This document shows, piece by piece, positions 9,477-46,247 of a stretch of DNA of 64,000 bases. The stretch comes from Paramacrobiotus metropolitanus. Lineage: Eukaryota > Tardigrada > Eutardigrada > Parachela > Macrobiotidae. Position 1 is the stretch's first letter. Every line of letters begins with the position of its first letter. Below the pieces are notes generated by a model. That model was not told the DNA's origin and made no database searches. It saw only the letters and a list, made by a program, of their open reading frames with translations. The position numbers were made by a program, and so were the translations under genes. The DNA lies in assembly GCF_019649055.1 (NCBI RefSeq), contig NW_026570247.1, forward strand, positions 186,001 through 250,000, given 5' to 3'.

Positions 9477-9484
9477 GCTATGGC

Positions 9485-13345: not shown

Positions 13346-13359
13346 CAAAATGGGCGTCG

Positions 13360-13665
13360 CTGTACGTCTCTGCCGTTGGCGAATCAGCAGGAGAGGGTTC
13401 CGCTGAACAAGCCAGCACAGCATATCCACATTCCAGTCAGGCCAGATCACGTTGGCTAGCGGGGCTTTCCACTGCGATGCGGTCGACGCACTGTGTTCCT
13501 TCGTTTCCTGTGGACCGTCACCGCCCACTGTCCACCAGTCAGCGACGACCTTTACGCTCAGATGGCGCAGGGATATTAGCGCTGGGTGAGCGGTCTGGTC
13601 TATCCCGGGAAAGATACAAGATTCGGGGATATTTCCAACTGTAAGTCGTACACAGTGCGACTGCA
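13360..13665 (+). pseudogene. F-box family exon 3 relic (3' end)
   Basis: It still encodes AHCPPVSDDLYAQMAQGY, then WVSGLVYPGKDTRFGDIS, next to a GTAAGT donor, as at the end of exon 3 in the family. A TAG stands where paralogs have the residue before RWV. The right-arm counterpart (45690-45957, minus) reads through that point. It belongs to a paralog type distinct from C. It lies at the outer end of the left inverted arm. Confidence 0.6.
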
Positions 13666-13837
13666 GAGGTTGCATGCATTCTGTCACTTAAGTTCCGCGG
13701 TAGACTGTCGAAAGAACCGTCGGGAAATGGTAATGATTTTGGCTGTGTGTTGTAATCGGAACAGAGCTAGCAGCAGGAAGGCATATTTACCACAATGGCT
13801 AGTGGTTTCCGTGTCACACTGACTCTGAATTAAAATA

Positions 13838-13912
13838 TAGCTACTATATAGCTGATACTATATACTATATAGCTGATACTGATACTGATCTACTATATAG
13901 CTGATACTTGTC
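13838..13912. repeat. short AT-rich minisatellite
   Basis: Imperfect copies of a unit built on CTATATAGCTGATACT. A degraded counterpart (TATCAGCTATATAGTATGATATCA) lies in the right arm near 45470-45500, so the seed predates the inverted duplication and the array grew on the left. Confidence 0.6.
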
Positions 13913-14124
13913 AGTGTAGTCTGAGTGACCAGAGACGCCCTAAATGCTGCTACCTGCTTCTTGACCTGACCCACATGGAATTGCAAATTTGCAAAAGTTG
14001 ATATGCCTGGCAACCAGAGCGTATCAAGCCAGCGCTATTTATCAGCGTCACAGAAATAAGTCCCCTTGGTGTCGGCATGAAAGCGTTGGCTACGCCACGA
14101 GCAACACGGTGTGACCATTATAAA

Positions 14125-16325
14125 ATGAATGGAATTATGGCATCCTCGACATCACTGCCACCCTTCCGGCGGATGCGTGTGGCGTCGGATGGCCGTTCTT
14201 TCGGCTACCAGAACACGGTGGTGGTGCAGTCTGACAGCGACGCTAATTGTTATTGGCTGGGATACATTCAAGACATCTCCGACAATTGCGAACAAATTCT
14301 GGTCGAGTTCGATTCCGAAGGGACGGATGCGCGCTGGATGGAGGCCAGTCGCGTGTGGCTGGCTCCGTTTCCGGGCGATGTTCCCCTGGATTATCGCTGG
14401 CAACGTGGGAACAGGGTGCAGGTGGCGCTGCAGGATAAGCTCAACGGACCCTTCCGCTTCCGAGCGGCGACGACAAGGGGCGGCATCTCGGCTAAGCACG
14501 ACCGCGTCTGTTTTGTTACCACCCCTCCCGCGTCGAGGTGTGGTTCCCTGAAAGAAAACGGTGCACCAGCCTTCGAAGTAGTGGACCGTTGCCAGGTCGT
14601 CACTGAATTGCCGTCGGCCCGAGCGTCGCGCGCCAACGCTGTTAGTGGCTTCCGCTACGTCAAGGTGGTCATCCCATTCCCCGGGTCTCTGTCCGTGCTG
14701 CGAGGTCCCGCCGACCGAACTCTTCTCGTCCAACGTCTCCGTGATGCTATGAGCGGGCACGAAACCCTGAAGAAGCTACACGACAGCTGTCGCTTCCAAC
14801 TGCGCATCGGAACGGACAGCTGTACTTTCATCGTCTTAAGCGCTGCAATGGAGGTCATGCCGGCGGAGTGGACGACCGCCACGTTGCTGCAGGTGCTGCA
14901 GAACCTAAGTGCCGATCAAGCGGGACTCGTCTCGCTACTGAACAGCTCAATCTTCACAGAGCAACATAGCGGCCGCAGGAAGAGCCGGTACGAAGACGGA
15001 GGCCAGCGTAAGTGATCGTAAAGTGACCTTTCTAATAAAATAGGAGTACTGCTCCAAGGTAGCTTTTTTCAGTCGATTTGGACGGCGCCGATTTCGTTCA
15101 TCTGCCGGCTCCGCTGTGGACCGCGATTCTCCTGCAGCTGGACCTCCACACGCAGGCCACGGTCAAAAGGTCAGCGGCGACTAAACGCCACACAAATTTA
15201 CTCGTAAATGACGCATGGCCTTTAACATGTCTTGACAGGGTGTGCTGCTTATGGCATCAGATTCTCAGCGACCCGCGCAACATGAACCACATCATCTTCG
15301 GCTGCCGCTTCTGCAGCAACGGCGCGGTGCAGTGCCTGATCGGAAGAGACCACGCCGCGCTCCGACTCTTGTCCCGCTCCATCCGTTCCACCACGAAAAG
15401 TCTGACGATCGTCGTCGGGCACCGCCACGAATGCGACATATCCTTCGTCTGCTACCAGCTTTTTTTTGCCTTGAACCCGCGTCTACCACTGCTCATTCTG
15501 CGCGATATCCACCTGAATTTCGGCGGCTTGGGAGACGAGTACCACTTCTTCCCCATGGAGGTCACCCGATTCCGCGACTACGCCCGGCGCATTATCCTCC
15601 GCCACTGGACGCTTTGCAATCTGTTCCGCTTCGCCATGTTCAGTTTGTTCAGCCAACCGTTGGAAGGCCCCGATATCCTCTTGCTGAGCGAGGAGAAAAA
15701 TTGGATGGTACCGCTGCACTATGAGGCCGCCCCGCTTAGCATCGACCAGATGCAGATCACGCTGCCCAACGTGGAATTCCACTGCGATACACGCGAGGAC
15801 GCCATGGCCAGTAGTTTCATGTGGGCCGTCAACGCCCACTGTCCACCGGTCAGCGATGACCTTTACGCCAAAGTAGCGCAAGTCCACGAGCGTTGGGTGC
15901 GCAGCCTGGAGTACCCACGGCAATGGAAGGGGATCCGGGAATATCTCAACGTGTAAGTGCCCACGCTGTTCACGCCATTCCGCTGCACAGTGACCTTTAA
16001 ACTGTTTTGTTGCACAGTGACCTTTAAACGGTTATTCTGCACAGTGACCTTTAAATTGTTTTGTTGCACAGTGAAAATGGTTTTGTTACAAAGTGACCTT
16101 TAAATGGTTTTGTTACAAAGTGACCTTTAAATGGTTTTGTTACAAAGTGACCTTTAAATGGCTTTGTTACATGGTGACCCTAAATGTGTTGAAACTGGCA
16201 GGTTTAGCCCGTTTTTTGGCGACGGGAGCGTAGGATGCTGGGATGACGAGGACCTGCGGACGTTGGACGTGCTCCAGCTGAGCAAACTGGCGGTCCTGGG
16301 CATCAGCGAGGTCTTCCGCGTCTGA
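14125..16325 (+). CDS. Tudor/Agenet-like + F-box protein, gene C (intact)
   Basis: Spliced gene: 14125-15007, 15073-15169, 15239-15952, 16202-16325; phases match and give 605 aa. Residues 1-294 form the N-terminal half: a Tudor/Agenet-like strand pattern (NTVVVQSDSD, YWLGYIQDISDN, RWMEASRVWLAPF) and then VQVALQDKLNGPFRFRAA. The F-box spans about 305-345 (LPAPLWTAILLQLDLHTQ, then VCCLWHQILSDP) and is split by intron 2. The rest is family-specific, with MWAVNAHCPPVSDDLYAK and a tail SKLAVLGISEVFRV. Likely role (inference): substrate adaptor of an SCF ubiquitin ligase. ATG 14125 was chosen because the start aligns with paralogs and because the upstream in-frame ATG 14077 is out of frame in copy D; 14137 is another possibility. 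Introns are short (65, 69, 249 nt). Intron 2 has no stop and is a multiple of three. Confidence 0.85.
15980..16195 (+). repeat. tandem repeat in intron 3 of gene C, TGACCTTTAAA units
   Basis: About seven or eight head-to-tail units of roughly 27 bp (range about 22-30). The core is CAGTGACCTTTAAA or AAGTGACCTTTAAA, joined by TGTTTTGTTGC-like spacers. On the other strand each unit offers AAAGGTCA, the half-site form bound by nuclear receptors. Copy B has one unit in the same intron, and copy D has about two at the same place (near 42690-42730), so the array expanded in gene C. Confidence 0.75.
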
Positions 16326-17440
16326 CACGCAGCTGTACCGACGCACGGATGCACCGGCCTTATCGTCGCCTTATTTGGCGCATCAGCCGTTACGCCATGT
16401 GTATAATGTAAATACACCTTATCATTCACTGGTGTTCCTCCATTTCTGTCTCTAATTTACTAATTTGTGCTTATATGCTTTAATGCTGTACAGTCTGTAG
16501 TTCTTTATTCTTACGTTAGTTGTGTAATATTATACGTACATCGGAATTCACTTGTGGCACATTACCGTAATTTCCTTGCTAATTTGTGCTTATATGCTTT
16601 AATGCTGTACAGTCTGTAGTTCTTTATTCTTAGTTGTGCAATACTGTACGTACATCGGAATTCACTTGTGACACATTACCGTAATTTCCTTGTAATGGTA
16701 ATCGGTTCCAATGAAAACAGTCATCCAAAACATGGCTGATATCTCTGACATTCGTGTATAACCAGCAGTACTGGGACGTTGAAAGCATTTCGGACATTTG
16801 GGATGCGCGTGCCGTACACCAGAGAAACGGTACTCTTCGTCCTGTCCGCGGTGGTACGCATAACAGATACGAGTCAAAAGAACGATAATTAGTGTATGTA
16901 TGTATAAAAGCTGGTGGTAAAAAAAATTAGACGTCCGGTTACTCCGGTACGGGATCACTGTCCAAGCCGCACGCATTCCCTTGACCAGAGCACCGTCGGC
17001 ATTTACAGATAGACCAACCTGTTTAATTTTGGCATGCGCATTGTCGGGATATATTTTTGTTCGTGTATTTCAGTAAATGAATCGTTGTATTTGTTGCTGC
17101 TCCGTCTGTCGACAGGCTGGTAAGAAACCTGCTTGAATCCCGGGGAACAGAGAGGGACGAGTGAATGCTTACGGTCAACTGTACCGGGGATGTACGAGGT
17201 CATCCGTCGCGTATCGCACATGTTGGCGAACAATCATTACGAGTACAGTTCTTCGTGAACCGGATGCACGGTGCATTAAGGATACGGCCGCAAAACGCTG
17301 GGCTAACGGCCGTGAAAGCGAAAAGGAACAGGAAACACGAGGAAGGTACATGCAGGACAATGTCAGTAAACACTGGGATCCTGTGGACAATAATCGGTAA
17401 AAAACATTCCTCGGAAAATCTGTAACGTATACGCAGCGTG
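16326..17440 (+). repeat. 3' flank of gene C (direct duplication, copy 2)
   Basis: Counterpart of 11327-12350. It contains an additional local tandem duplication: about 120 bp at 16455-16575 repeats at 16577-16695 (shared TAATTTGTGCTTATATGC and CATCGGAATTCACTTGTG). No gene is recognised. Confidence 0.65.
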
Positions 17441-17769
17441 CCCGATGGAGTCACCGGTGTGGTATCGGTTCCTGCGGCATGCAGGCATAGCTGTGCCAGA
17501 TACCTGTGTCAGTCTCAGGACAAACTGCTCTCTTATCCACGCATCACTCATAGCCGAGTGGTTCTTAAAAATCTGACTTTATTGGCGTCCCAACAAGAGG
17601 CCGCTCGTACAGTCGGCCCTCCCGATTTTCAGACGGGAATGAATGTGACCTTAGACAGCGAGCGAATACAAATTATTCCACGTGCAGGCCGGACAGCAGA
17701 GTTAAGGTAGCATAGTGAGAAAACCGTCTGCATGATTTATGTACTTCATGATTTATGTACTGCATGAAG
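17441..17769. other. intergenic, nothing recognised
   Basis: Short open frames only. A tandem ATGATTTATGTACT repeat sits near 17734-17765, just before the relic. Confidence 0.3.
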
Positions 17770-18655
17770 TATAGATTTTATTTTCTCAAGTACTATACCA
17801 GGGGTTATACGGTACGCGCAGGTAGCGTTCTGGGATGAGATCAGCGGGGTCCGACAGTTCCTGGACAGTGAGCGGGCCGCGACGGCGGATGCGGACCCAC
17901 TGGATGTGTGTTGCAAGCGTGCTTACCGAACTACCTGTCGGCATACACACCCAGCGCCAACGCCGGCCAACGCCTTCCTTATTGTGCCAAGCACTGACGC
18001 GCTGTACCCCGTTTCCCGCCTGCAGTGCCTGCCTACAAAGAACTATCTTCGCCCGTCTTCTTGATGCCAAGAAAGGGCCCCAGCTGAAGAAGCGGGCGCG
18101 ACGTAGCTAGGTCGTCAGTCTTAGCGTCCCGGCGGCGCTCCCGCCGGCGGAAGTGCCGTGCGCCCGATGACTGCCGGTGCTGTGGCCGTATTGTCGGGAG
18201 CGTCGGGCGGGACCGACCCGGTAGTCACCGAGCACTGCAGTCCGCCCCACGCCGCCTTTAACCGTCTGCCGCGTCTCCGCTGCGGACCGCGGTCCTCCTG
18301 CACCCACCGGGATGGTCCGGCCCAGCCGCCCAATAAAAGGTCAGCATTTATTGCCGATGGTGCGTGTGCAACGGCAGACACATGCCCGACGACCAGGGAT
18401 GACTGCGGACCAGCGTGACCTTTCACGGCGCCGCCCTGCCTGGCCACTGGCCAGCCGTTGGATGTGCGCCGTCCACGCCCACTGACCGCCGCGGTGAGCG
18501 ATGACCTTTAGGCCATAGTGCTGCACGTGTACCAGCGCTGGATAAACAGCCTAGCCGGACGGTCTCGGACAGTGCAGGAAGGGCTCCGGGAAGATCGCAG
18601 CATGTCAGGAGCGAAACGAGACGCATGACGCGGTGTACGTGCTATTCTCAAAATG
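17770..18655 (+). pseudogene. eroded F-box family relic 2
   Basis: Second copy of the relic seen at 12390-13345 and, inverted, at 41935-42700. Recognisable ghosts are GCGGACCCACTGGATG, AAGAAGCGGGCGCGAC, the exon-2-like end CGCCCAATAAAAGGTCAGC (the donor style of gene C), and the exon-3 ghost GTCCACGCCCACTGACCGCC with GATGACCTTTA. No frame survives. It sits between gene C and the 3' end of TUT1 in the left arm, and in the equivalent place in the right arm. Confidence 0.55.
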
Positions 18656-19074
18656 ATCATTGCACTGGCATTTCATATAGATATGTTCTGTTGTAGATAT
18701 GGATTGGTTTTCGTAAATAAACAAGCGTCAATGAATATATTCTTTTACAGATTTTTCCGTCAGTTATTGACTAGTTTCTTCCCGATTTTATTCTGTATTA
18801 ATGCATTTTCATTATTAATATTTTCATTCGCCCAATGCGGCGCACAACCCAACAGCGTCCGTACGCTGGCGATCCGAGCCAGAATATGCCAGAACATCAG
18901 CATCACTGTAACAAAAACGAAGACTCAACAATCTCTGAATCTACACATTAACACTTCACCTCGACAACAGTCATTAATCAACAACCCATTCCCGTGCATC
19001 CACAGCGCGGCGGGCGCCGCTTCCCAGCCAACGGCAAGTAAATACAACCGGAAACACAACAACAACAACAACGG

Positions 19075-22000
19075 CTAACGGCGCTCTTCAGCCCCGCTGC
19101 GGGCCTCCGGCCAGTGCGATCCGTTCAGTCCACGCGGTGCCGCTGCGGCGGCGTCCTCCGGCGGATGCTCCGCGGAATCCCGCCCGTTCTCCAGCTCCGC
19201 GCTGTGCCCCAGACGCAGGAACCGGCGCAGATGCTCCGGCAGGAAACGCCGCAGAAACTCAAACAAATTCCTGTACATAATTACCGGTTTATTAACCGTA
19301 CCACCAGATTTTATTTCATTACATACGAATTTAATATTTTATTTATTTTAATAATTATAGTTAACATATTTAACAATTATTTATCAGTTTGTTTTATCAT
19401 TATCGGCTACTTCATCTGTTTGCTGCACAAGAAAACGAAGATGAACCGCATCAAATACCCTTTTAAATTATTTAATAAACGCCGCAGAAACCCAAACAAA
19501 CTCCTGTACAGCCTACCGGCTCTTCGACATTACCACAACATTTTAATTCGTTTAATATGTAATTAATATTTTATTTATGTTAATAATTGTGCAGAAGTAT
19601 GTGTTAATTAGAAAATTAATTTTTTTGCCATTATTTGCTGCATCTGTCTATTGCGCGGTAAAAATCCAGGCAAGAAAATGAGAAATTAATTCTACAGTGA
19701 AGTGAAATCTTCCGCGTATCTGTTATAATGAAACAGTTGAAAAAGCGTTCTTACTGGAGATCCGTTGAGGACTCCTCGGCGGCGAGGAAGACGCAGAGCC
19801 GCTCCGTCTCGACGGCGTTGTGGAGGAGCGTGAGGCGGAAGTGCAGGTCCACCGGCCGCCCGGCAGTCGCGGCGATTCGCTCGGCCACCTGGCACTCCAG
19901 CCGCCACTGCTCCTCCAGACCCAGCAGCGTCCCCGGCCGCTTCTGCAGCACGGCCTTGCGGTAGGCGCGCCGGTTCAGCCAGGTGCGCTGCTGCAGTCGG
20001 CACTCCCACTCCGCCACGATCCGCCCGATCTGCCGGAAACGCCGCGTCTCGCCACTGCCGCCGGCCATGTCACCTGCACCACAGCCATGCACACTCAAAT
20101 CCCACCAAAAATTATTTAACTGAACAAACAAATTCGTCAGAAGAAATAAATTAACACAAACATCCCCAGAAAATATACAAGAAATTTTAGGAATAAACGA
20201 ATAAGCAGAAGCGTTTTATATTGACAAAATACACTGCCGTCGTCTGCTGAAAAAAGATCCAACACAAATCAAAATTTTTTTTGTACCACGCGACGAGACG
20301 CCATTTATATATTCAAACATAAATAAAAAGGTTCAGAAAATTCACAATGTAATAAAATTACCAAAAAAACAATTTTTATTAAAAATCATAACTTGAGGCA
20401 GTTCAAAAACTAATTGAAAAATAGCAAGAAAATAAAATAATTATTAAAGAAATACGAGTATAAAATACGCAGGAAACACCGAAGGATGATTATGGTTAAA
20501 ATTATATTTCCACAACAATACCTGCCACCCTGCACCCAACAGTTAGCAGTAAATTACAAAATAAGATACTTACTGAAAAAACAAAAACGTTTTAAAAATA
20601 TTTGATGCAAAAAGGATTAGGAATAGAGCATCCAGAAATTAAGTGCAAATCGAATCAGTTTGGAAAATCAATTAATGAAGAAAAAAATTCTCACACACCG
20701 CTGGCCACCAGGAGCGGGCAGTCATACAAATTAGCCACTAATAATAAGCAGTAAATTACAAAAGTGATCAACGACAAAAACATAAATTATTAAAATTAAT
20801 GCATTAGAAAATGACCAGAATAAATCTAAATAAATCGGTTCAGAAAATCAATTAATGGAGAAAAAAAAGACCAACTCACCGTCGACCGCCGGCAGCGGGC
20901 AGTCACACTTGAAGAACTCGACCAGCATCCGGCGCAGCAGCTCCGGGACGCGGGGCGCCCATTGGTCAAAAGGGATCGCAGCCTGAACGGCCGAGAGCTG
21001 CAGCATGACGGGCGGCGGCGCCACGTCTTCGCGGTCGGTTTCCAGCAGCGGGAGGAGGTTCAGCGCGCGCCGGCGGAAGACGGCCACCTCCTCTTGGAGC
21101 CAGCGCTGCAGCGCCACGAAGGTGGTCAGCGAGACGCTCTTGGCGACGTTGTGCGAGAGATCGAAGGGGTCCTGCAGGTTCACGTAGCGCAGTTTGAAGG
21201 GGTCGCCCGTGGGCGGCAGGGAATCGCGGAAATCGCTCAGCGGGACCACTTCGCCGCTCCAGCCCCGCATCACCGTCGTGGGGAAGGAGAAGGTGGAGTA
21301 ATACTCGAAAAAATCCAACAATAATTCCGCTGCAACACAGCGAAGTGTATAATTATTAAATAACTAAGAATTTTTAATTAAACGTATAATTACTTGTATG
21401 TATATGTTGTGATTAATAATATAAAAAAATCCACCAATAAATCCGCTGCAATACAGCGAAAGGTATAAATAATCCTAATTAATATAAATTCAAACGTTTA
21501 ATATGGGTAAAAAAATGCCAATTTCAGAAGCAACATGAAGGTACACTAGTGCAACGTATTACTGTATTTTTTTAAATGTTAATTCTAATATTTCCCCACA
21601 ACAGACCTGATGCGAAGGAGATTTATCAAGTTCAACCAAAAGGTCTATTTTCAGCGGTTTTTTATTTTTCAGTACACCAACGAATTATCAACAATTACAA
21701 AGGTCAAAATAACGCAATAATCAAATTAAAAGTATTAACGTTAGCACAGTAATTATACAACGCGTTGAAATAAAACAACGTCAATATTCTGTTTCCTTTT
21801 AACTGGTTTGAAGCTGTGATTTTATCGGCCTTTATTTCGCAATCCGTTAAATATTTTCCAAAAACTTAAAGATAAATTAAACGTAGCCTATTCGTTTTTA
21901 GTACTTACGGTACTTAATAAAAAAACTAAATACGGCACTTTTTTATTTTTTAACCCATAAAGAATTTATTAAAAATTAAAAATAATTTAATTCGGAGCAA

Positions 22001-27286: not shown

Positions 27287-27470
27287 GATTCTCGTAAATA
27301 ATGCGCTCAGCTACACAGTCAAACAGGGGATTTACCGGATACGCTGCGTCCATTGCTCTGCTGCTGCCGAGCAGCGTCAGCAGACGGGCCATTGACACCA
27401 GCGGCACGGGCCACGGCGGGCATCGGGGCATCCGGAATAAAAACTTAAAATTAAAAAAACTAAAAGATAG

Positions 27471-33573: not shown

Positions 33574-34053
33574 CTACAGTCGAGAGTCACAGATTAATAT
33601 TAAATTAAATTGTTTACATTTCAAACATTCCTAGTATCTGAAAACCATAAAATGTACGAGACATCCAAATTATGAAATATATAATTTATTAATTAATAAT
33701 CAATTAATATGATCAAATCATTTCATTGTTAATCAGGCTGATATCATCCTTGTGGTTCTAGGCAGTATTTTTTTAAAATTTTTCAGACAGAAAATTCGGA
33801 ATCAGCGTTATCGATTCACCTACAGCAGAAGCTGCGCAAAATACACAAAATAATTTTTGAAATTTTGACTCCATTGCTACCACCCATGGTAGTTGTTTTA
33901 CCTTCGATTTTATTAAAAATATTTTTAAAATTTTAACTAGAAAAAATTCATTCACCCATTTTGCATTTTTTACTCGGTTTCAGTTAAACGTATTTGCTGC
34001 TCATCCTCACGAAATTAAGACTGCGTTATTATAACAGCATTCCTACCCCACAG
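33574..34053. other. AT-rich, nothing recognised
   Basis: Should hold the first intron or 5' part of gene F. I see no convincing exon on the minus strand. Confidence 0.35.
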
Positions 34054-34216
34054 GCACCCGGAGAGCGGCTTGATTTCCATGGACAAAAACAGAAAACACT
34101 CGGAGCCCGCCGCGGTACTGCACGGTGCTGCAGACCGGATCGAACTGGGCACCCTGAAGGCCCAGATCCTGCCCCAAATTAGTCAGGCCATCAAGAGCCA
34201 CTACGTCGACGAGAAG
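34054..34216 (+). CDS. unrecognised candidate exon
   Basis: Follows a CCCCACAG acceptor-like site. It has strongly GC-biased third codon positions, as in the real exons here, and reads SGLISMDKNRKHSEPAAV, then DRIELGTLKAQILPQISQA and SHYVDEKR before a TAG at 34214-34216. A possible donor follows AAGAG near 34207. I do not recognise the protein. It could be an isolated exon of a plus-strand gene or a gene fragment. The opposite strand is also open but with poorer codon use. Confidence 0.3.
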
Positions 34217-35129
34217 AGGGTGTTTTTCTTGCAGTAGCTGTATTTGAGCGTTTGGCGCTGGAAAAGCGACAGCAATTAATTTAGCACACATGGCTACGAA
34301 GAGCTGTCAAGAACACTCTTGCTTTACCTGGAGTTATAATAAGGTTAAATGTGGGTTGCCCGGCCATTCTAGCCAGTAATAAAAATCAAAATTCTAGCAC
34401 GAGACAAAAACAAACCGACTTAACCGAGTATGTCGTTGCGGAAGCGGGGAGAAGAAACAGCAGAACCGAAAATGGGGAACCTGGCAAACTGCACGAGCTG
34501 ACGATGATTTGCAAAATTGCAAACTAGGCCGGCGGCGCACACCGTTCAGCGGACAGCGAGTCGAAAATTAGCCCGGGGTGTCGTGCTCTGTCCTACGGAT
34601 GACAGCGTACGACAGGCAAGGCAGCCGTGATACAGTTCCGCTGAGCAGTGTGAACTCCATCGAGTCTATGTTGTGGAAACCATTTTCACTGCCACTGGAA
34701 CTGGACCGTTTTTCTCATGATTCTTGATTTTAGTTTTGATCTTCCGTTAAAAACCAACTTCTTTTAACATTTTAATTCAAGATTGTGTAATTTTAAAATA
34801 ATTTAAAATAACTGAATTGTGAATTTTGTCTCCGAGGGCACAAACAGCAATGATGAAGTCTCAGTTTTCATTCCTGGCATTGGTATAGTATGCGAAACAA
34901 ACAAATAGAGCGCATTCAGCGAAATCGCGGTGCAACACTTCCGGTTGCAATATTCTGCAAAGGCATACATCAGAGACAGCATGGCCAGCGCCTCGTTTAC
35001 CTCGTTGCACTAGCCAAACGCACTGCACTGCCAAAAACAATCGCCGTGATTTGTGAAACGACGCGGTGGCTTTTTTGAAGGTTTTCTTCACAGTTTTTCT
35101 CAGCGCATATTTCCGTTAAAAAAACACTT
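34217..35129. other. central spacer, right part
   Basis: No supported gene and no match to the left spacer. It ends where the right inverted arm begins. Confidence 0.35.
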
Positions 35130-35253
35130 TCCTTTTAGTTTGTAAATTTTTAAACTTTAATCCGGATGGCCAGATGACTGCCGTGAACAGCTGCTGTCTG
35201 CTGCGTATCCGGTAAAAACCACCTGTTTATTAGCCTGCGTACGAGAACGCTAG

Positions 35254-38200
35254 TTGACTGCGCAGTGCGATTTACGAGCATCTTCTGATTCTTGTCTTTG
35301 TGGAGCGTCCTCCCGACCGCGTTTTGGCCCGGACCCGCAGCGCGATGCTCCCGCGGTTGTTGAGACAGGGGAGTCGTTGGCCTGGACGCCGTCTGCGTCG
35401 TCAGCGCTGTCGGCCAGCAGGATCGCTGAACTGCGGCGCTCGCTGTTCATTCCCTGTCTGCCGGACGAGATCGAGCTGAAAGAGCTGGCCGCGCGTCTCA
35501 CGCTGCTCGGGAATATTCAGGAGATTATTGTCAAGAGGAATCAACGGGTAAGTTTTGCCAATACGGATTTATCATTTTATTGTAGATTTTAAAAAATTAT
35601 TCTGCGTGAAAAAATGTGAAAATAATTGAATTGTTGATTTAATTAGTCATTTTTAATTCTGTCGAATTTCGTCACCATTTTCCGTTCTCGACTTTGCGTG
35701 GTGTGATGTTGCCATAGTTTTTCGCTCTTCTTGTCAATTTCGAGATGCGGTTGTTGTCATGGTAAATGACCGTAGTTTTCTTGAGAATTTGCTGCAACTA
35801 TGGTAACATGCGCTGCACCGCAAATAATTTTTTTGCCAAACGTTTTAATTATTGTATTATTTTCGTACGTGCCAATTGGCAGTTCAAATTATTTTTGCTC
35901 CGAAAATACGATTTTTATTACAGCATTATTTTTGGTCGGCTTTCGTTGAATGTTCGGTTCTTTGGTGAATTCCGGTTTTCAATTACGAAATAATTTTTAC
36001 TCGCTGAAAGCGGATTGTGGTAAATTTGCAGGCGTTTTTCTTCGATTAATTTGAAAAAGCGATTTAACAATTATTGATCAGTTGATTTGCAAATTATGAA
36101 TCAATTATTAAGCAAATGCAGTCAATTATTCGGTGCATTTTTTGTTGGTCGGTTTATCGGTTTTCATTTATTTTTGAAATTATTCTTGTAGTCGTGCTTG
36201 GCTTGCTGATTAATTACTTGTGATTTGTGAAGCGACATGACATGGCATGACGCATTAATTTTGCGTTTGTGAGGTTTTTTCCTGACGATTTCTTTTTTGT
36301 AGAAGTGACTACATTGATTAAACACATTTGTACTAATTCTGTGTACATATTTTACGTAGCAGCTGAAATTACGTAGCAGCTGAAATTCGAAATAGATCGA
36401 ACCGAATTATGTTTTCAACCATTGATAATTTATTTTTGAAAATTACCGAACCCTATCCGTTTCGAATCGCCGAATCGGATCAATTTGTACTAAGCGTGCC
36501 GTGTGGAAATTTTAAATGCTCAGCGTAAAACGCAGCCAGAATTAATTGATTTAATTTTGGAATTATCAGTTATGTGATTTATTTGCCTGCGACCTGGCGG
36601 TGCGCCGATAAAAATCCCCGTTGCGCATAATTATATAATTGGCAGGCGGTGCGCTTCGGCATCGTCGTCTTCGTGGAGGAGGAATCGGCGTTCGACGCGC
36701 TGCAGGCCGGCCTCGTGGTGCAGGAGCAGCGCGTGGCCATGGAGCCGCGCCGGTCGCCGGACGGCCACCCGCACCCGCCGCGGCTGCCCCGCGACACGCC
36801 CACGCCCCTCATCGTGCAGCGCGCCCCCGGGGGCCGCGGCGTCCCTTTATCTGTTTTGCCGGCGGGCGTGCCGGTCCTCAGCGAAGACGAGGCTTACGAG
36901 CACCACCGCACGGGACGGCCCCCGGGGGCGGTGGCCTTCCGCGCCCCCGTCCTCCACAGCTGGCTGGAGTTGGTGCAGAAGAGGCAGCTGGCTGTTCCCG
37001 TGGTGCCGCTGGCCGGGGAGGCCGTCAAGCGGAAGAAGGCGCCCCACCACAAATTCTCCTTTCTCACCGAGACGGATGATGTAAGTGCAATGGGTATGTA
37101 TTTTCGCCACTTATTGACAATTTGTACCGCGCTTGATTTCTGTATAAATTTTGCTGGGTTTTTGTGCATTTTTTTGTTGAGTTATTTTATCCGTATACTG
37201 CCTTGCTTTTTCATTAATATTTGCATACGGATTTGTTTTGGTTGTATTTGATTTAGTTATGTTCATTTCAATTTTTGTTTAATTTTCTTGGATTATTTTG
37301 AGTGAGTTTTTTCTTTAATTTTGAGTGAGTTTTTTACTTGGTTTAAAAGATATTATTCTGGATTTATTCAAATTTGGGAAGTATTGAATTTTCAGTTTAT
37401 TGAATTTTTTCGTGTAGCAATATTTTTTGCCGGCTAATTTGCGCGATATTTCTGTGAAGACATTTTTGGTGATTGTAATACTACCAATCATCAATCATTT
37501 TTGGTGATGGTAATTTATTAAGTATTTCCCCGGATTGAAATAGTATGTTTGGTATTTACAAATGCATGAAGTTTTGATCAGGGATTTTTGGGCGCGAAAT
37601 TAGATTTTTGAATGCGGCTTGCGCTTTTCATCGCGTTGCTGCCGTTGCAGGAATTTGTTTCCAAAAATATATTTCAAAATTTTTGTTGTGCCGCAGCTCT
37701 AAATCCTCATCTTAATTTCAAAAGGGAATTTTTATTTTAATTTTCGAAAAGATTACTTCCAGTAGTTTTTTCAACTGATTGTTTTCGAAAACGTCCTATT
37801 AAGCACAATACGCTTCTCGAAAAATACTGCCGGTTTTTCATTTCAACGCATGATTTCCATCTTTCACCATTTCTCGGCCTGCTACCGGCAAAATCGCGTT
37901 AATATTTGCATAGTTATTTATTTTGATTTTTACTTCATCGTTTGGTAAGATGAATGGTGTTGCAGCCGTGTCAGCAAATGCGCTTGTTGATGGAGCGGTC
38001 GCAGTTGAGTGAGGAGGAACGCGATGCACGGGAAAAGTTGAGGCGGCAGCTGGAAGCCACGTTCCGGCGGTGCACGGTGCGTCTGTACGGATCCCTGACT
38101 ATAAGGTAACCCCTTTAATTCTACAATTTTTTAATTTCTTAACATGAATAGCAATAATTTCTTTATTTTGTTTTATAAGATGAATAGCAATTTATCAGCA

Positions 38201-41200
38201 GTAAATACCGTATGTGGCGTAATTAACATTTTGATGTAATTTAATTTGTGTTCCGTATTTTTGTTTTTCATACCCCGCGAGCAGCCGATGAGCTATTATT
38301 TTTCCAACGTGACGCAGCTGTTCCAGTGCCCGTACGAGCCGTGGGAGCTGGCTGGGGAGTCGCCGAAAGACATCCTGCGCCTGATGGAGAAGCTGCTGCG
38401 CTACCTGGCCAAGAGCGAGAACTACGAGGACGTGATGGCCATTCCCGCGGCCCGCACGCCCATCCTCAAGCTGCGCCATCCCGCCGCGCACCTCAGCGTC
38501 GACGTCTCCTTCACCAGCAAGTACGCACCCGCGCTCGACGCTCAGAATTAATCATTATTATTTTTGGAATTAATCAAGAATAATTACCAAATTAATTTGG
38601 ACTTCTGTAGATATACGAATAATTTAAGAAAATAAAAATGAATTATTTTCCGGTATCGTAATTATTTTTTTAACTATAAAGAGGAATAATTGAAACAATA
38701 ATTGGGTGTTCTTTAGAGTTTTAAATTCATTAAGAATAAAATAATATGAGTTATTTTCGGCAATTATATTTACTATTTGACGTTGCAGTAATATGGAATA
38801 ATGGGCGAAATCAGTTGAAAAATCGCTATAAAATAATAAAAATAAGAACGACAATAATTATAATAGTAATAATTATTAAGGAAGATAATCCAATCATTGG
38901 AATAATAAATCAAATGATTGATGAAAAAATAATAATAATTGATCCAATAATCAAAAATAATAATAATTGATCCAATAATCGATCCAATAATCCGATAATG
39001 ATAATCCAATAATTGGAATAATAATCCTTCCAATAATTATTTTGGAAGATGGGGTAAAATATTGTAGTTGTGGTGTTTTTAATACGTTATTTGATGGTTG
39101 GCTCTACGACAGGTCTACGAATGCCGAGTAGCCAATTGAGATGTGTACAAAATGATTGCACAACGTATCTCTAAATTTGCACAGGATCGTAGTGCAGTGG
39201 CGCCGCTGTTTAGCACTTAGTACGGTTTTCTTATTCGATTCAGATTGCTAATCCTGTTTTTTCATTCTTGTTAGCCTGCTTAGTCCTAACCGTAATTTAT
39301 CAAATTATATAACGGATAGTCAGTGGTCTCCCAGATTAATTATCCAGATAATTTTGCGAACAGTTTTTGTCTGTTATTACTGTGCATTAGAAGAAAAGGG
39401 TGTATTATTTCGACAAAAGCCCGTATACATAACAAAATGCCTGCGCCGATTTACACTAATAAAAATGATCGAATTTTAACATTAAAAAAACATCAACAAC
39501 ATTAAAAAAACATTAAAAGAAGAAAATGAATTAAAACAGTGACGTTGAAGAAATGCATAATAAACTGCAGGTTGGTGTTCGAGAACACAGGCCTGCTGAT
39601 TCTGTACAGCCATCCGGCTGCAAATTAGAAATAAATTTCCAGAAATAAATTTTAGAAATTACATTTTGATTTCTGTAAATAAATTTCAGTAAGGTGAGTA
39701 AAAATTTTTACAAATAAACCATAGTAAAAATTTTCAATCCAGATATGTATCTTTTAATAGACGAATGTCGGTAGCAAATAAACTTAAATAATCAGTCATA
39801 ATTGCAGGTTAGTGTTCGAGAACACGGGCCTGTTGATTTTATATAGCCACCTGGAGCCCCGGCTGCGGCCGCTGGTGTTGACGCTGCGGCAGTGGGCGGA
39901 CGCCAAGGAGCTGACGGGCAGCGAGGGACTGACCAAGTACGCCCTGACGCTGCTCCTCGTCTTCTTCCTCCACACCCAGGAACCCGCCGTCCTCCCGCCG
40001 CCCGACGAGATCCACCGCCATGTCGTGAATAATCCCCGTCTGACGCGCTTTTTGGACGAGGAAGGCGGCTTCAGCTTCGATCTGCCCGAGAGGAAATTGG
40101 CCGACTTGGCCAGCGAGTTGCCGCCCTCGACAAATACGAAAACGGAAGGTACGTTATTTGTTGCATTTCTTGTCGCTGAATTTATCTGGTCGCATTTTGT
40201 CTTTCGTATTATCCACGATTTATTGCTTCGCATTTCACAATGATATTAAAAATTAATATTAATAAATTCTGATTTGTAGTTCGGGTTTTGAAAATTAATG
40301 CCTTTGTTCTGTGATTACGCACTATTTTACCGTGGGTACTAAAACTGTTGCTCCGAATTAAATTATTTTTAATTCTTAATAGCTGCTTTATGGGTTGAAA
40401 AATAAAAACCGCCGTAATAAATTTTGTAATTAAGTACCGTGCGTAGTAAGTACTAAAATGAATATGCTACGTTTAATTAATCGTTAAGTTTTTGAAAAAT
40501 GTTTAACGAATTGCGGAATAAAAAAGCCGACAAATGTTTAACGGATTGCAGAACTTTCTGCTAGAAAGCCGACAAAATCACATCGCAGACTTATAGGAAG
40601 GAAACAAAATACTGATATATAAGCGCCTTTTATAATTACCGTGCCAAAATTAATCATCTTGATTTAATGATTGTGTTATTTTTGGTTTTGCCGTTTTGTT
40701 AATTCGCCTGTGTACTGGCAACTAAAAACCGCTGTAATTAAACCTTTTGGTTGAAAATAACAATAATTACGATTTTTGCTCAGTGCTGTTGGGAAATATT
40801 GAAATTAATATTCTAAGAAATACAGTCATTCGTTGCGAAATGTACCTTACTGTTGCTTTTGAAATCGGCATGTCGTTCCGATTTTGTATATAAGTTACTA
40901 AATTATTCATTTAACTGCACATTAATTAGCATTTTTTATATACATTTATATATACGCTTCGCCGTATTGCAGCGGATTTATTGTTGGATTTTTTCGAGTA
41001 TTACTCCACCTTCTCCTTCCCCACGACGGTGATGCGCGGCTGGAGCGGCGAAGTGGTCCCGCTGAGCGATTTCCGCGATTCCCTGCCGCCCACGGGCGAC
41101 CCCTTCAAATTGCGCTACGTGAACCTGCAGGACCCCTTCGATCTGTCGCACAACATCGCCAAGAGCGTCTCGCTGACCACCTTCGTGGCGCTGCTGCGCT

Positions 41201-41302
41201 GGCTCCAAGAGGAGGTCGCCGTCTTCCGCCGGCGCGCGCTGAACCTCCTCCCGCTGCTGGAAACGGAGCGCGAAGACGTGGCGCCGCCGCCCGTCATGCT
41301 GT
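35254..41302 (+). pseudogene. TUT1-like copy, inverted, catalytically dead and truncated
   Basis: Exons corresponding to the left gene: about 35254-35547, 36646-37080, 37966-38105, about 38270-38520, 39808-40148 and 40973-41302. Exons 2 and 5 are full length (435 and 341 nt) and nearly identical to the left copy. Exon 3 is 140 instead of 234 nt. It keeps VRLYGS but loses everything from SSVNTFG through GSDIDSF, so both catalytic Asp codons are gone and the frame shifts (94 nt lost). The exon 4 acceptor, GTAG in the left copy, reads ATAC here. Exon 6 stops matching after PPPVML, and exons 7 and 8 are absent. It cannot encode an active enzyme. A transcript could still exist, and it would be nearly identical to TUT1 mRNA over several hundred bases. 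Confidence 0.85.
38780..39030. repeat. AAT-rich low-complexity tract
   Basis: Repeated AATAAT and TGATCCAATAATC words in the intron of the dead TUT1 copy. The matching left intron (about 23400-23600) is AT-rich but not expanded in this way. Confidence 0.55.
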
Positions 41303-41925
41303 ATGGTCACCACGGCTTCTCCTGCGCATTCTCAGCTGGAAGGCATCCACGCCATGGCGGCCTGAACAGTATTTTTTTGTGCAGATCGTTAGTATCAGCC
41401 GGCATCCCTGCAAAATTGGAGCCGCGAGGTACATCCCACACATCGGACCGCCGCCCAGATGGCTGCACCACGTTTGCGTGGCAACGCGGTATGTGTTTGG
41501 CGTGGGACGTGACCTGCGTGGATACTGTTGCTATGTCTCACCGGAAAGCCACATCAGTCACTGCGGGATCCGCCGCCGCACAGGCGGAGGATAGGAAAGC
41601 GGGATTGTACTTGTACCTTCAGGGCAGATACATCTTCGTACCGCTGGCTTTTGAAACTCTTGGACCATGGGGAAAGTCAGCTAGCCGATTAGTGAAAGAA
41701 ATTGGCAAGCGACTTCAACAGCATACGGGTGAGCCTCGCTCCCATGAGTACCTCCGTCAACGACTGTCGCTGGAAATTCAGCGAGGCAACGCTGCTTCCG
41801 TGCTCGGGACAATGGAGGGAGCGGCAGCATTAAATGAGTTATTTTTTATTTGATTTATTGTTTTGAAACAGTGATGTTACCGCTACTGGCTTGTGCTAAT
41901 AAAACACATCATACCTGACGGAGAT
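41303..41925 (+). mobile_element. LINE 3' fragment (restriction-like endonuclease end of a non-LTR polymerase)
   Basis: In frame with the broken TUT1 exon 6, the sequence runs on to a stop at 41851-41853. It contains RRPDGCTTFAWQRGMCLAWD followed by VTCVDTVAMSH, then FVPLAFETLGPWGKSASRL and SLEIQRGNAASVLGTM. The last motifs recur, as I recall, at the C-termini of many invertebrate reverse-transcriptase proteins. The PD...WDVT spacing is like the restriction-like (PD-(D/E)XK) endonuclease of R2-type LINEs. The reverse transcriptase domain itself is absent, as expected of a 5'-truncated insert. An AATAAA lies near 41898. The fragment replaces left-arm sequence from 18.69 to about 21.0 kb. Confidence 0.6.
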
Positions 41926-41934
41926 ATCTACAAC

Positions 41935-42700
41935 AGAACATATGAAATGCCAGTGCAGTGATCATTTTGGGAATAGCAAGTGCGTTATGCGTCTCGTTTC
42001 GCTCCTGACATGCAGCGATCTTCCCGGATCCCTTCCTTCATTGTCCGGGACCGTCCTGGCTGTTTATCTGGCGCTGGTAGTACGTGAACAACTATAGTCT
42101 AAAGGCCATCGGTCACCGCGGCGGACAGTGGGCGTGGACGGCGCACATACAACGGCTGGCCTTGCAGGGCGGTGCAGTGAAAGGTCACGCTGGTCTGCAG
42201 TCATCACCGGTCCTCGGGCAGGCGTCCCGGTGGATGCAGCGGAGGCGCGGCAGACGGTTAAAGGCGGCGTTGCGCGGACTGCAGTGCTGGGTGACTACGG
42301 GCCCAGTCCCGCCCGACGCTCCCGGCCAGACGTCGGCAACCGCACCGGCCGTCATCGGGCGCACGGCCCATTCCGCCGGCAGGACCGCCGCCGGGACGCT
42401 AAGACTGACGAAGGGGCTACCGTTCGGCCTGAGACGGCCCGCTCCTTCAGCTGCGGCCCCTCGGCATCAGGGAGACCGGCGACCATAGCTCTTTGTAGGC
42501 AGGCACTCCCATGGGGAAACGGGGGACAGTGCGGGGCACAAGAAGGAAGGCTACTGCCGGCGTTGGCGCTGGGGTTTCGTAGCAGGCTGGCAACGCACGT
42601 CCCGCGGGTCTGCATCCGCAGTGGCGGCCAACACGCTGGATCGGACCATGCTGATCTCATTCCGCAGCGCCACCGGCACGTACCCCATTTAAAGGTCTGT
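41935..42700 (-). pseudogene. eroded F-box family relic 3
   Basis: Minus-strand counterpart of relic 2 (17770-18655). Shared landmarks (plus strand) are CATATGAAATGCCAGTGCA, CTGACATGCAGCGATCTTCC and CGGACAGTGGGCGTGGACG. No frame survives. It abuts the truncated intron 3 of copy D, so a deletion removed D's last exon and flank. Confidence 0.55.
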
Positions 42701-42761
42701 GCAACAAAACCATTCAAAGGTCACTGTGCAGCGGAATGGCGTGAACAGCGTGGGCACTTAC

Positions 42762-44672
42762 ACGTTGAGATATTCCCGGATCCCCTTCCACTGCCGTAGG
42801 TACTCCAGGCTGCGTACCCAACGCTCGTGGACTTGCGCTACTCTGGCGTAAAGGTCATCGCTGACCGGCGGACAGTGGGCGTTGACGGACCACATGAAAC
42901 GGCTGGCTATGGCATTCCCGTCCGCATCGCAGTGGAAGACCACGTTGGGCAGCGTAATCTGCATCTGGTCGACGGCCAGCGGGGCGGCCTCATAGTTCAG
43001 CGGTACCATCCAATTCTTCTTCTCGCTCAACAAGAGGATATCGGGGCCTTCCAACGGTTGGCTGAACAAACTGAACATGGCGAAGCGGAACAGATACTTA
43101 GTGGGGCAGCCGTATAGTTCAGCGGAGCCATTAAATTCTTCTCCTCGCTCAACAAAAGGATATCTGCGCCTTTCAACGGTTGGCTGAACATGGCGAAGCG
43201 GAACAGATCGGGCGTAGTCGCGGAAGCGGGTGACCTGCATGGGGAAGAAGTGGTACTCGTCTCCCAAGCCGCCGAAATTCAGGTGGATATCGCGCAGAAT
43301 GAGCAGCGGTAGACGCGGGTTCAAGGCAAAAAAAAGCTGGTAGCAGACGAAGGATATGTCGCATTCGTGGCGGTGCCCGACGACGATCGTCAGACTTTTC
43401 GTGGCGGAACGGATGGAGCCGGACAGGAGTCGGAGCGCGGCGTGGTCTCTTCCGATCAAACACTGAACATCGCCCTTGCTGCAGAACCGGCAGCCGAAAA
43501 TGATGTGCTCCGTGTTGCGCGGTTCGCTGAGAATTTGCTGCCACAAGGCGCACACCCTGTCAAAAAAACGTAAAGGTTTTGCGTCACTTATGGATAAATG
43601 TGCGAGCTGCTTGGTCGCCGCTGACCTTTTGACTGTGGCCTGCGTGTGCAAGTCCAGCTGCAGGAGGATCGCAGTCCAAAGCGGAGGTGGAAGATGAGCG
43701 AAGTCGGCACCGTCCAAATCGACTACGGTAAAAGCTACCTTGAAGCAGTACTCCTATTTTATTAGAAAGGTCACTTTACTGATCACTTACGCTGACCTCC
43801 ATTTTCGCAGCGCCTCTTCCTGCGGCCGCCAGGATGCTCCGTGGAGGCTAAACTGTTCAGTTGCGACATGAGCCCCACTTGTTCGGCGCGATGTTGCTGC
43901 AGCACCTGCAGCAACGTGGCGGTCGTCCACTCCGCCGACATGACCTCCATCGGAGCGCTTAACACGATGAAAGTACAGCTGTCCGTTCCGATGCGCAGAT
44001 GGAAGCGACAGCTGTCATGTAGCTTCTTCAGGGTGTCGTGCCCGCTCATAGCGTCACGGAGACGTTGCACGAGATGAGTTCGGTCGGCGGGACCTCGCAG
44101 CACGGACGGAGCCCCGGGGAACGGGATGACCACCTTGGCGTAGTGGAGGCCACTGCCGGCATTGGCGTGCGACGCTCGGGCCGACGGCAATTCGGTGACG
44201 ATCTGGCAACGGTCCACCACTTCGAAGGTGGGTGCAAGGTTTTCTCTCACTGAATCGCTCCTCGGCGCCGGAGGGGTGGTAACAAAACAGACGCGGTCGT
44301 GTTTATCCGAGATGCCGCCCATCATCGTCGCCGCTCGGAAGCGGAAGGGTCCGTTGAGCTTATCCTGCAGCGCCACCTGCACCCTGTTCCCACGTTGCCA
44401 GCGGTGTTCCAGGGATCATCGCCCGGCAACGGAGCCAGCCACACGTGACTGGCCTCCATCCAGCGCGCATCCGTCCCTTCGGAATCGCACTCGACCAGAG
44501 TTTGTTCGCCATTGTCGGAGATATCTTGAATGTATCCCAGCCAATAAGAATTACGGTCGCTGTCAGACTGCACCACCACCGTGATCTGGTAGCCAAAAGA
44601 ACGGCCATCCGACGCCACACGCATCCGCCGGAAGGGTGGCAGTGATGTCGAGGATGCCATAATTCCATTCAT
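42762..44672 (-). pseudogene. F-box family copy D (inverted twin of gene C), broken
   Basis: Exons on the minus strand: 44672-43791, 43722-43626, 43556-42762. The three splice junctions match gene C, including the stop-free 69-nt intron 2. Exon 1 is one base shorter than in C (CCC for CCCC near 44412), which shifts frame after LAPLPGDDPW. Exon 3 is 81 nt longer than in C. After RDYAR it carries a piece of a paralog's exon 3 read in another frame (HVQPTVERRRYPFVERGEEF and on) before rejoining LFRFAMFSLFSQPL, so the frame downstream is kept. No 124-nt last exon exists; intron 3 runs into relic 3. The protein is otherwise very close to C (about eight differences in the first 84 residues). Confidence 0.8.
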
Positions 44673-45640
44673 TTTATAATGGTCACACCGTGTTGCTCGT
44701 GGCGTAGCCAACGCTTTTCATGCCGACACCAAGGGGACTTATTTCTGTGCTGACAAATGCGCTGGCTTGACGCTGGGTTATATACTTGTAATGATGCTGC
44801 CCCCACAGACGCTTTGCGGATTCCAATGGTTTCAGATAGCGAGAGCGAAGGAGTTGTTTAATGGTGTCACACTGGTGTGCCAAGCATCCGGGAAGCGAGA
44901 GTCTCTCTCTTCAGCTCTGATTGCAAATTTGCAATTCCATGTAGGTCAAGTCAAGAAGCAGCAGCGGCATTTAGGGCGTCTGTGACTACTACCACTCAGA
45001 CCACACTGACAGGCAATGTGGACCAGTTGTGCTGCGCAGATCGAACTGCAACATGCTGCGCGCCACAACTTTGGCCTCTGACACCTTACTGAGTGGGAAG
45101 AATGGGAAGAATGGTGTTACAGACAGTCGGACGAGAAAAGTTCCATTCGGCAGCCACATTGCGGTTATTGCACAATTGGTTAACCCGGTTCATAGGACGC
45201 GAATAGCGCCGGCACTCAACTGATTCAAGACGCCTTGTGGCTCCGGCATACTTGGGACGGCACAAGTCGTGTCACCGCACCTGTCTTGTTGATTACCGAG
45301 CCATGTTGTATGATAAGAAATAACAGAAAATATGCCCTTGCTCGCTGTAATTTTAGGAAATGATTTGTTATTTCCCCAAGCCTAAGCAAAATAACACAAT
45401 TTGTAAGCGCAGACAACAGAATTTAGAGAAAACTATGTACATGTTAGTTAAATAGGGAGCACCTATCAAGTATCAGCTATATAGTATGATATCAATTAGG
45501 AGTCAGTGTGGCACGGAAATCACTAGCCATTGTGGTGAATATGCCTTCCTGCTGCTAGCTCTGCATAAGCGGGTTCCGATTACACACAGCCAAAATCCTT
45601 AACATTTTAAGACGGTTCTATCGATAGTCTACCGCGGAAC
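44673..45640. other. 5' flank of copy D and inverted-arm intergenic
   Basis: Near copy D it matches the upstream region of gene C (GATTGCAAATTTGCAATTCCA and AGCCAACGCTTTTCATGCC). From about 44760 to 45450 it holds sequence without an obvious left-arm partner. No gene is recognised. Confidence 0.4.
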
Positions 45641-45957
45641 AGTTAAAAGAATGCATGAAACCTCTGCAGTCGCACTGTGAACGACTTACAGTTTGAAATA
45701 TCCCCGAACCTCGTATCTTTCCCGGGATGGACCAGACCGCTCACCCAGCGCTCATATCCTTGCGCCATCTGAGCGTAAAGGTCATCGCTGAGTTGCGGAC
45801 AGTGGGCGTTGACGGCCCACCGGAAACGAAGGTATACAGTGCCGTCGACCGCATCGCTGTGGATAGCTCCGCTAGCCAACGTGATTTGGTCTGACTGGAA
45901 TGTGGATGCTGACTTGTTCTGCGGAACTCTCTGCTGCTGATTCGCCAACGGCAAGTG
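45640..45957 (-). pseudogene. F-box family exon 3 relic, right-arm copy
   Basis: Encodes RWAVNAHCPQLSDDLYAQMA, then ERWVSGLVHPGKDTRFGDIS. It is the counterpart of 13360-13665 but is open across the point where the left copy has a stop. Exons 1, 2 and 4 of this paralog are not seen. It marks the outer end of the clear inverted similarity. Confidence 0.6.
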
Positions 45958-46247
45958 ACCTAACCAACAGGAATGGATTTAAGGAGTTGGGAGTTAGCAT
46001 TTGATTTATGGGGAAGAGCTGCTTATAGACAATAAGTTATAGTGCAGTTCATCCGGTTTTTTGTAAGTAATAGCGCATACTCGTATGTAAGTAAACCAAT
46101 GGACAATTTGTAGAAGAGCGTGCTGCGTCTGTACTTTGGAGCGCAGTCGTTTGGAGTTCAAAATATAGTTCGGTTCTGTTAATCTCGTTCATAGTTATAT
46201 TTACAGAAGCCGACGAGCTAGGGAAACAGGGCCTTCGGTGTCAACGA

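What the first reader, a model, noticed from the sequence alone, without database searches (positions are those of the whole stretch)
13370..45957. A large, gene-bearing inverted duplication with a ~7.7-kb centre
Seen directly: exons, relics and even a minisatellite of 13.37-27.47 kb recur in reverse order and strand at 35.13-45.96 kb. Matched exon borders fall at 27029/35547, 25814/36646, 22548/39808, 21329/40973, 15952/42762 and 14125/44672. Exon identity is high while introns have drifted. Such palindromes are unstable and often collapse in assemblies. In a metazoan this is either a real segmental inversion-duplication or two haplotypes wrongly joined head to head.
Basis: seen in the sequence. 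Interest (0 to 1): 0.85.

Follow-up and report, generated by a model that had tools for sequence, protein, structure and literature searches.

The report
Old mirror-image duplication around TUT1 gene
A stretch of what looks like animal chromosome, carrying an RNA-tailing enzyme gene and an F-box gene, was copied long ago in mirror image; one copy looks intact, the other looks broken, and the two seem to have overwritten parts of each other, which is neat in detail but a known kind of event.

Summary
The minisatellite array does not recur: the right arm keeps about one and a half units.

A haplotype mis-join is unlikely: no N in the window, introns 2-6 differ by JC 0.13-0.41, left stretches of 1.8 and 2.3 kb have no right counterpart, and the divergence resembles other paralogues in the window.

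The left arm holds an intact-looking 8-exon, 786-aa TUT1/Star-PAP-type gene. The right copy has a frame-breaking first exon, a 94-nt loss in exon 4 that includes the catalytic DxD, a lost splice acceptor, and a 3' end replaced by another ORF. Its F-box neighbour has a frameshift and no terminal exon.

Identity is a mosaic. TUT exons 2, 3, 5, 6, 7 have pooled Ks 0.054 and no indels; exon 4, next to the deletion, has Ks about 0.4. A 576-column tract with 2 differences runs from intron 2 into exon 3. This fits gene conversion between arms of an old inverted duplication, then decay of the right arm. No reads, relatives or species name were available, so the assembly question is answered only indirectly. 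Ordinary in kind; interest 0.3.

The parts
13371..27701 (-). Left arm of the inverted duplication (TUT1-like gene, F-box gene F3, F-box relic)
   Evidence: colinear inverted BLAST chain
34898..45953 (+). Right arm (decayed TUT1-like copy, F-box copy F4, F-box relic)
27702..34897 (.). Centre, 7.2 kb, not shared between the arms; holds a minus-strand RRM-protein gene (RRM_1 7.9e-15 in ORF 29807-30307) and a partial tandem copy (28703-30005 and 31694-33049, 82%)
19751..27423 (-). Left TUT1/Star-PAP-like gene, model of 8 exons, 786 aa: 27423-27336, 27270-27029, 25814-25380, 24809-24576, 24036-23789, 22548-22208, 21329-20880, 20073-19751
   Evidence: model; Pfam MTPAP-like_central 9.5e-26, PAP_assoc 1.1e-05; best PDB match human TUT1 (Star-PAP) 5wu1 2.7e-48
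35174..41301 (+). Right TUT1-like copy, pieces 35174-35211, 35306-35547, 36646-37080, 37966-38105, 38273-38520, 39808-40148, 40973-41301; no exon 8 match
37966..38105 (+). Right exon 4: 140 nt against 234 (12-nt and 82-nt gaps); the larger gap covers the left copy's GSDID (DxD) stretch; Ks 0.39-0.45
25431..26012 (-). Left side of the clearest conversion tract: 576 aligned columns with 2 differences, from intron 2 into exon 3 (partner about 36447-37029)
   Evidence: 0 of 2000 class-wise permutations as long
41302..41853 (+). ORF stretch at the place of the TUT1 3' end, in frame with right exon 7; degenerate relatives in pieces at 9333-9878 (-), so probably a dispersed repeat; likeness to the end of a retroelement polyprotein is recalled only, Pfam found nothing
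14125..15956 (+). F3: F-box gene in the left arm (F-box interrupted by a 69-nt intron model at 15170-15238); terminal exon of the family at 16203-16322
   Evidence: (F-box-like 5.9e-04, below Pfam cut-off)
42758..44672 (-). F4: F-box copy in the right arm; 1-nt frameshift near 44406, net 81-nt insertion made by an internal duplication, terminal exon not found
14042..14201 (+). Left side of a low-divergence stretch in the F-box pair (157 aligned columns without a substitution, small gaps inside; 122 bp exact); a second at 15391-15557 (167 columns, 1 difference)
13371..13859 (+). F-box relic at the outer end of the left arm (partner 45469-45953, 85.6%)
45469..45953 (-). F-box relic at the outer end of the right arm

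Best explanation
A real, old inverted segmental duplication, in what looks like an animal genome, placed two copies of a block holding a TUT1/Star-PAP-like nucleotidyltransferase gene and an F-box gene on either side of a 7.2-kb stretch with an RRM gene, inside a wider F-box gene array. Since then the arms have exchanged short stretches by ectopic gene conversion, mostly where they still match (exons), while introns and the block around exon 4 drifted. The left TUT1 copy stayed intact. The right copy lost a readable first exon, its catalytic DxD, a splice acceptor and its 3' end (where another ORF, probably repeat-derived, now lies) and is most likely a pseudogene. Shown: the duplication in this sequence, the lesions, the mosaic divergence. 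Inferred: that the mosaic is conversion, that the right copy is non-functional, and that the assembly is correct here.
For: Colinear inverted arms. Left model open throughout, matching human TUT1 over residues 247-751. Lesions in the right copy. Ks 0.018-0.088 in exons 2, 3, 5, 6, 7 (pooled 21 of 401 synonymous sites) against 0.447 in exon 4 (11.2 of 33.2; 0.387 for its first 31 codons; Fisher on rounded counts 3.9e-6 and 8e-4). Tract of 576 columns with 2 differences crossing from intron 2 into exon 3; the last 190 columns of that intron have 2 differences against 112 of 747 in the rest, Fisher 1.2e-9; 0 of 2000 permutations as long. In the F-box pair a run of 157 columns without substitution, 0 of 5000 permutations as long. 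Zero gaps in 1,595 columns of those five exons against 67 gap openings in 5,300 columns of introns 2-6.
Against: Exon similarity alone could partly be codon-level constraint: the exons are GC-rich (GC3 0.79-0.92). Exon 3 against exons 2, 6, 7 differs only at p=0.042. Exon 4 has few synonymous sites (20-33). The permutation tests ignore local rate variation, and columns in poorly aligned stretches and gap columns were dropped; the F-box run contains small gaps (its longest gap-free exact piece is 122 bp, within the largest permuted run of 139). No outgroup, so direction and date of conversion are unknown. No reads.
Confidence: 0.78

Rival explanations
1. Assembly artefact: two haplotypes of one TUT1 locus were joined head to head.
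For: Erroneous scaffolding is known to create false palindromes (PMC7953838, passages read). No read evidence was available. A mis-join could put an unshared centre between the arms, so the centre by itself does not speak against it.
Against: No N in the window. Divergence (intron JC 0.13-0.41; exon-4 Ks about 0.4) is well above the allelic divergences of 2.4% and 5.5% quoted as relatively high for two rotifers (PMC7953838) and resembles other paralogues in the window (F-box F2/F3 piece 78%, RRM pair 82%). The arms differ in content (left stretches of 1,779 and 2,300 bp), and the right copy carries several separate lesions.
Confidence: 0.07
2. Real inverted duplication without conversion: the exons stayed similar only because both copies were under strong constraint (including synonymous sites), and the right copy died recently.
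For: GC3 0.79-0.92. Of 35 differences in the five exons only 14 are non-synonymous, fewer than expected if the right copy had been neutral since the last homogenisation (P 0.0075-0.065 over six assumption sets).
Against: Exon 4 has similar GC3 (0.81) but about eight-fold higher Ks. Near-identity extends about 190 columns into AT-rich intron 2. The neighbouring F-box pair shows Ks 0.14 and 0.23.
Confidence: 0.13
3. Real inverted duplication whose right TUT1 copy is a working chimeric gene: catalytically dead, with a new C-terminus from the ORF at 41302-41853.
For: If exon 4 is skipped and exon 5 uses an acceptor 9 or 12 nt further in, pieces 3, 5, 6, 7 plus 41302-41855 read open for 630-631 codons, about 600 from the first in-frame Met. 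Exon differences look mildly constrained. A precedent exists for a partial paralogue that recruited a new end while still converting with its parent (fog-2/ftr-1, PMC3966223 passages).
Against: Needs an unproven splicing pattern and an internal start; exon 1 as modelled is out of frame and the exon-5 acceptor AG is gone. No transcript data.
Confidence: 0.1

Closest known systems
GSTT2/GSTT2B inverted duplication of African great apes and humans (PMC3375281; abstract and one section read)
   Same: Inverted duplicate of a protein gene; conversion between the copies; loss of function of duplicates
   Different: There the dying human copies are 99.4% alike; here near-identity is restricted to patches, introns 2-6 are about 69-88% alike in retained columns, and the visible damage is in one copy
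C. elegans fog-2/ftr-1 (PMC3966223; passages read)
   Same: Partial paralogue with a replaced 3' end, conversion in the shared part, one part left unconverted
   Different: fog-2/ftr-1 lie in tandem and fog-2 is functional; here the copies are inverted and the altered copy is probably dead
Y-chromosome palindromes and the palindromes reported in parthenogenetic animals (PMC7953838; passages read)
   Same: Inverted arms holding genes, with conversion between arms
   Different: Arms here are about 88% alike over the retained columns and unequal in length (14.3 and 11.1 kb), so conversion is patchy and does not keep the arms alike as a whole
TUT1 (Star-PAP) nucleotidyltransferases (PDB 5wu1)
   Same: Left protein matches over residues 247-751 with palm, DxD and PAP-associated domain
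   Different: The right copy lacks the DxD stretch and the C-terminal exon

Membership tests
Inverted segmental duplication | Two colinear, reverse-complement copies of one region on one molecule | tested here: met
   (as assembled)
Inverted segmental duplication | Both copies present in the real chromosome, joined by spanning reads | not testable with these tools
   no reads or genome held
Gene-converting palindrome of the Y-chromosome type | Arms near-identical throughout (over 99%; figure recalled) | tested here: not met
   1,031 differences in 8,383 retained columns (summed)
Paralogue pair with ectopic gene conversion | Bounded tracts of near-identity inside older divergence | tested here: met
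   exon 4 against other exons
Paralogue pair with ectopic gene conversion | Gene-tree conflict with orthologues in a relative | not testable with these tools
   no relatives found; no animal genomes on hand
Haplotypes joined in error | Divergence in the allelic range and colinearity without large one-sided stretches | tested here: not met
TUT1/Star-PAP (left copy) | Palm with GS...DxD, third Asp, PAP-associated domain | tested here: met
   (alignment shows GSSVNTFGVRGSDID and SVDVS opposite the human residues)
TUT1/Star-PAP (left copy) | RRM in the N-terminal part | tested here: inconclusive
   RRM_1 E 0.019, below Pfam cut-off, residues 76-131
TUT1/Star-PAP (left copy) | N-terminal zinc finger (recalled for the human protein) | tested here: inconclusive
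   none found, but exon 1 is only a model and an upstream exon cannot be excluded
TUT1/Star-PAP (right copy) | Catalytic DxD | tested here: not met
   absent; lies in the 82-nt gap of exon 4

The most novel reading that the evidence does not exclude
The right arm is not dead: it makes a chimeric, catalytically inactive TUT1 derivative (exon 4 skipped, C-terminus from a probably repeat-derived ORF) that is kept similar to the working enzyme by conversion between the palindrome arms, or whose transcripts pair with or compete with TUT1 RNA.
Probability: 0.1. Interest if true: 0.5.

Novelty: new member of a known kind. Interest (0 to 1): 0.3.

Why it matters
If the reading holds, it is a compact natural record of how conversion between inverted copies stops: exons that stay alike keep converting, while a deletion and diverged introns isolate one exon that then preserves the older age of the duplication. 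It also warns annotators that the right copy, 96-99% alike in five exons, is probably not a second working TUT1.

Tried and rejected
Whole-genome look-up: no genome is held for this window. Relatives: one scan of viral contigs with exon 3 and one of genome contigs with exon 7; 10 and 35 pattern hits, none confirmed, as expected for collections without animal genomes. Rfam at gathering thresholds (0 matches) and tRNA scan (0): nothing.

Taxon: not established. 'Animal' rests on gene structure and on the human TUT1 match; a tardigrade or other ecdysozoan was my guess from recall only. Two literature searches for an F-box expansion in tardigrades gave 0 and 4 papers, none on the point from the listing.

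Structure of the F-box N-terminal part: model mean pLDDT 43.5, too poor to search; not pursued. Pfam gave nothing for the ORF 41302-41850, so 'retroelement' is recall, and 'dispersed repeat' rests on degenerate pieces elsewhere in the window.

cDNA-mediated conversion (would explain exon-only similarity) was considered and is disfavoured, because the clearest tract runs about 190 columns into intron 2.

Hairpin RNA from the two arms silencing TUT1: considered; listing only, no evidence either way.

The first global alignment misaligned the exon-4 region; I replaced it by exon-anchored segments. In one search the GC3 printed for 'FboxC' is in a wrong frame and is not used.

Literature on haplotype-caused false palindromes: one broad search (listing only) gave nothing specific from its 10 listed rows. 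Searches (0 papers), 29, 34 and 44 were seen as listings, except that I opened PMC3375281 (abstract, one section), PMC7953838 (passages) and PMC3966223 (passages).

Full report
Observation. A self-comparison of the window and an arm-against-arm search with a smaller word give a colinear chain of inverted matches: 27701-13371 on the left against 34898-45953 on the right. The arms share 2,732 14-mers in inverted orientation, against 3 when the right arm is reversed without complementing; 16 exact inverted matches reach 60 bp, the longest 413 bp. Over the segments aligned,383 columns survive a filter that drops badly aligned and gap columns; 1,031 differ (88% alike, an upper figure because of the filter). 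The left minisatellite has no array on the right, only about one and a half units.

Anatomy. Left copy, minus strand: a model of eight exons with GT-AG borders encodes 786 aa without a stop. Pfam finds the MTPAP-like central palm, TUTase, PAP-associated domain and a sub-threshold RRM; among solved structures the best match is human TUT1/Star-PAP, 5wu1, E 2.7e-48, residues 247-751. Right copy, plus strand: first exon as modelled 38 nt instead of 88, which breaks the frame; exon 4 140 nt instead of 234, lacking the GSDID stretch; exon-5 acceptor AG replaced (ATA); exon 7 homology ends at 41301, followed by another ORF to 41853 in the same frame; no match to exon 8. Exons 2, 3, 5, 6 and 7 have no gap and, in the left frame, no stop. 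The F-box genes (F-box-like E 5.9e-04 once a 69-nt intron is removed, below Pfam's cut-off) form a wider array: copies or relics found left of the centre are all on plus (about 4.3-7.0, 10.7-11.3, 13.5-13.6 and 14.1-16.3 kb), those right of it all on minus (42.8-44.7, 45.7-45.9, 46.4-46.7, 47.8-49.5, 55.4-56.2 kb) among the tblastn hits at E up to 1e-3 and the four terminal-exon hits. That terminal exon is found at 4 places (16203, 11204, 6895, 47950; next hit E 2.0) but not beside the right-arm copy F4, which also has a 1-nt frameshift and a net 81-nt insertion. The centre holds an RRM-protein gene on the minus strand and a partial tandem copy.

Age and mosaic. Introns 2 to 6 differ by JC 0.133, 0.326, 0.406, 0.154 and 0.243 (intron 1 gave only 6 usable columns); upstream 0.375; flanks 0.163 and 0.116; F-box block 0.102; exon 1 0.474 on 37 columns. 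Synonymous divergence: exon 2 0.082, exon 3 0.018, exon 5 0.036, exon 6 0.088, exon 7 0.065; pooled 0.054, Ka 0.012, 528 codons, with 21 synonymous and 14 non-synonymous differences. Exon 1 was not included (short and gapped) and exon 8 has no partner. Exon 4 stands apart: Ks 0.447, Ka 0.079 over 46 codons; 0.387 over its first 31, where the alignment is safest. Against the pooled exons this is p 3.9e-6, or 8e-4 with the conservative part, on rounded counts. Exon 4's GC3 (0.81) is like exon 2's (0.79), so composition does not explain it. The clearest tract, 26012-25431, has 2 differences in 576 columns and includes about 190 columns of intron; shuffling differences within exons and within introns never gave as long a stretch (0 of 2000). 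The F-box pair (Ks 0.14 and 0.23) has a run of 157 columns without a substitution at 14042-14201 (0 of 5000), though with small gaps inside, and another of 167 columns with 1 difference at 15391-15557. These shuffles do not model local rate variation.

Reading. Old divergence interrupted by bounded near-identical tracts is what ectopic gene conversion between the arms would leave. The exon-4 block, flanked by the two most diverged introns and holding the deletion, would be the part that stopped converting. A review of Caenorhabditis paralogues notes that conversion is usually reported for exons because introns drift below the needed similarity, can extend into introns, and works in either orientation (PMC3966223, passages read). 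A great-ape inverted GSTT2 duplication shows conversion between copies during loss of function (PMC3375281, abstract and one section). Against this, strong synonymous constraint could account for part of the exon similarity (exon 3 against exons 2, 6, 7 is only p 0.042), and only an outgroup would tell.

Is the right TUT1 copy dead? Its lesions say so. But the 35 differences in the five exons contain fewer non-synonymous ones than a copy neutral since its last homogenisation should show (P 0.0075-0.065 over six assumption sets), so it decayed late or is still constrained. One unusual splice pattern would leave 630-631 open codons (about 600 from the first in-frame Met) ending in the other ORF. 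I give a working chimera about 10%.

Haplotype join. There are no N. The divergence, the lesions seen in the right copy, and the 1,779-bp and 2,300-bp left stretches without counterpart do not look allelic; rotifer allelic divergences of 2.4% and 5.5% are called relatively high in PMC7953838 (passages), which also warns that erroneous scaffolding creates false palindromes. Without reads I keep 7% for this.

Verdict. A true observation, best read as an ordinary old inverted segmental duplication with conversion and decay. New as a locus, not as a kind.

Noticed in passing
7519-7673 and 8652-8806: Two 155-bp direct repeats, 100% identical, 1,133 bp apart: a recent duplication or short terminal repeats of a small mobile element.
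   Followed up: no
52964-53206 and 54919-55160: Inverted repeats of about 245 bp, 90.7% alike, about 1.7 kb apart; may bound a transposon. A similar smaller pair lies at 56249-56492 / 56731-56967 (82%).
   Followed up: no
3558-3996 and 53805-54247: A 440-bp direct repeat, 90% alike, near both ends of the F-box array; looks like a dispersed element.
   Followed up: no
22548-23045 (left) and 39567-39808 (right): The start of TUT1 exon 6 has been copied into the intron before it: two extra partial copies on the left (near 23026 and 22786) and one on the right (near 39583).
   Followed up: partly
10736-13269 and 15543-18504: A roughly 5-kb-offset direct duplication, in pieces, of F-box gene plus downstream sequence within the left side.
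   Followed up: partly
4258-16322 and 42758-56157: F-box copies found left of the centre read on plus and those right of it on minus, so the mirror symmetry may once have been larger than the arms; outer similarity is weak (74-77% in two pieces of about 175 bp).
   Followed up: partly
14125-15015 and relatives: The F-box proteins carry a conserved N-terminal region with no Pfam match; the predicted strands might be a Tudor-like barrel (guess), but the model is too poor to tell (pLDDT 43.5).
   Followed up: partly
19751-27423: TUT1 exons are very GC-rich (GC3 0.79-0.92) while its introns are mostly below 40% GC, a sharp contrast.
   Followed up: no
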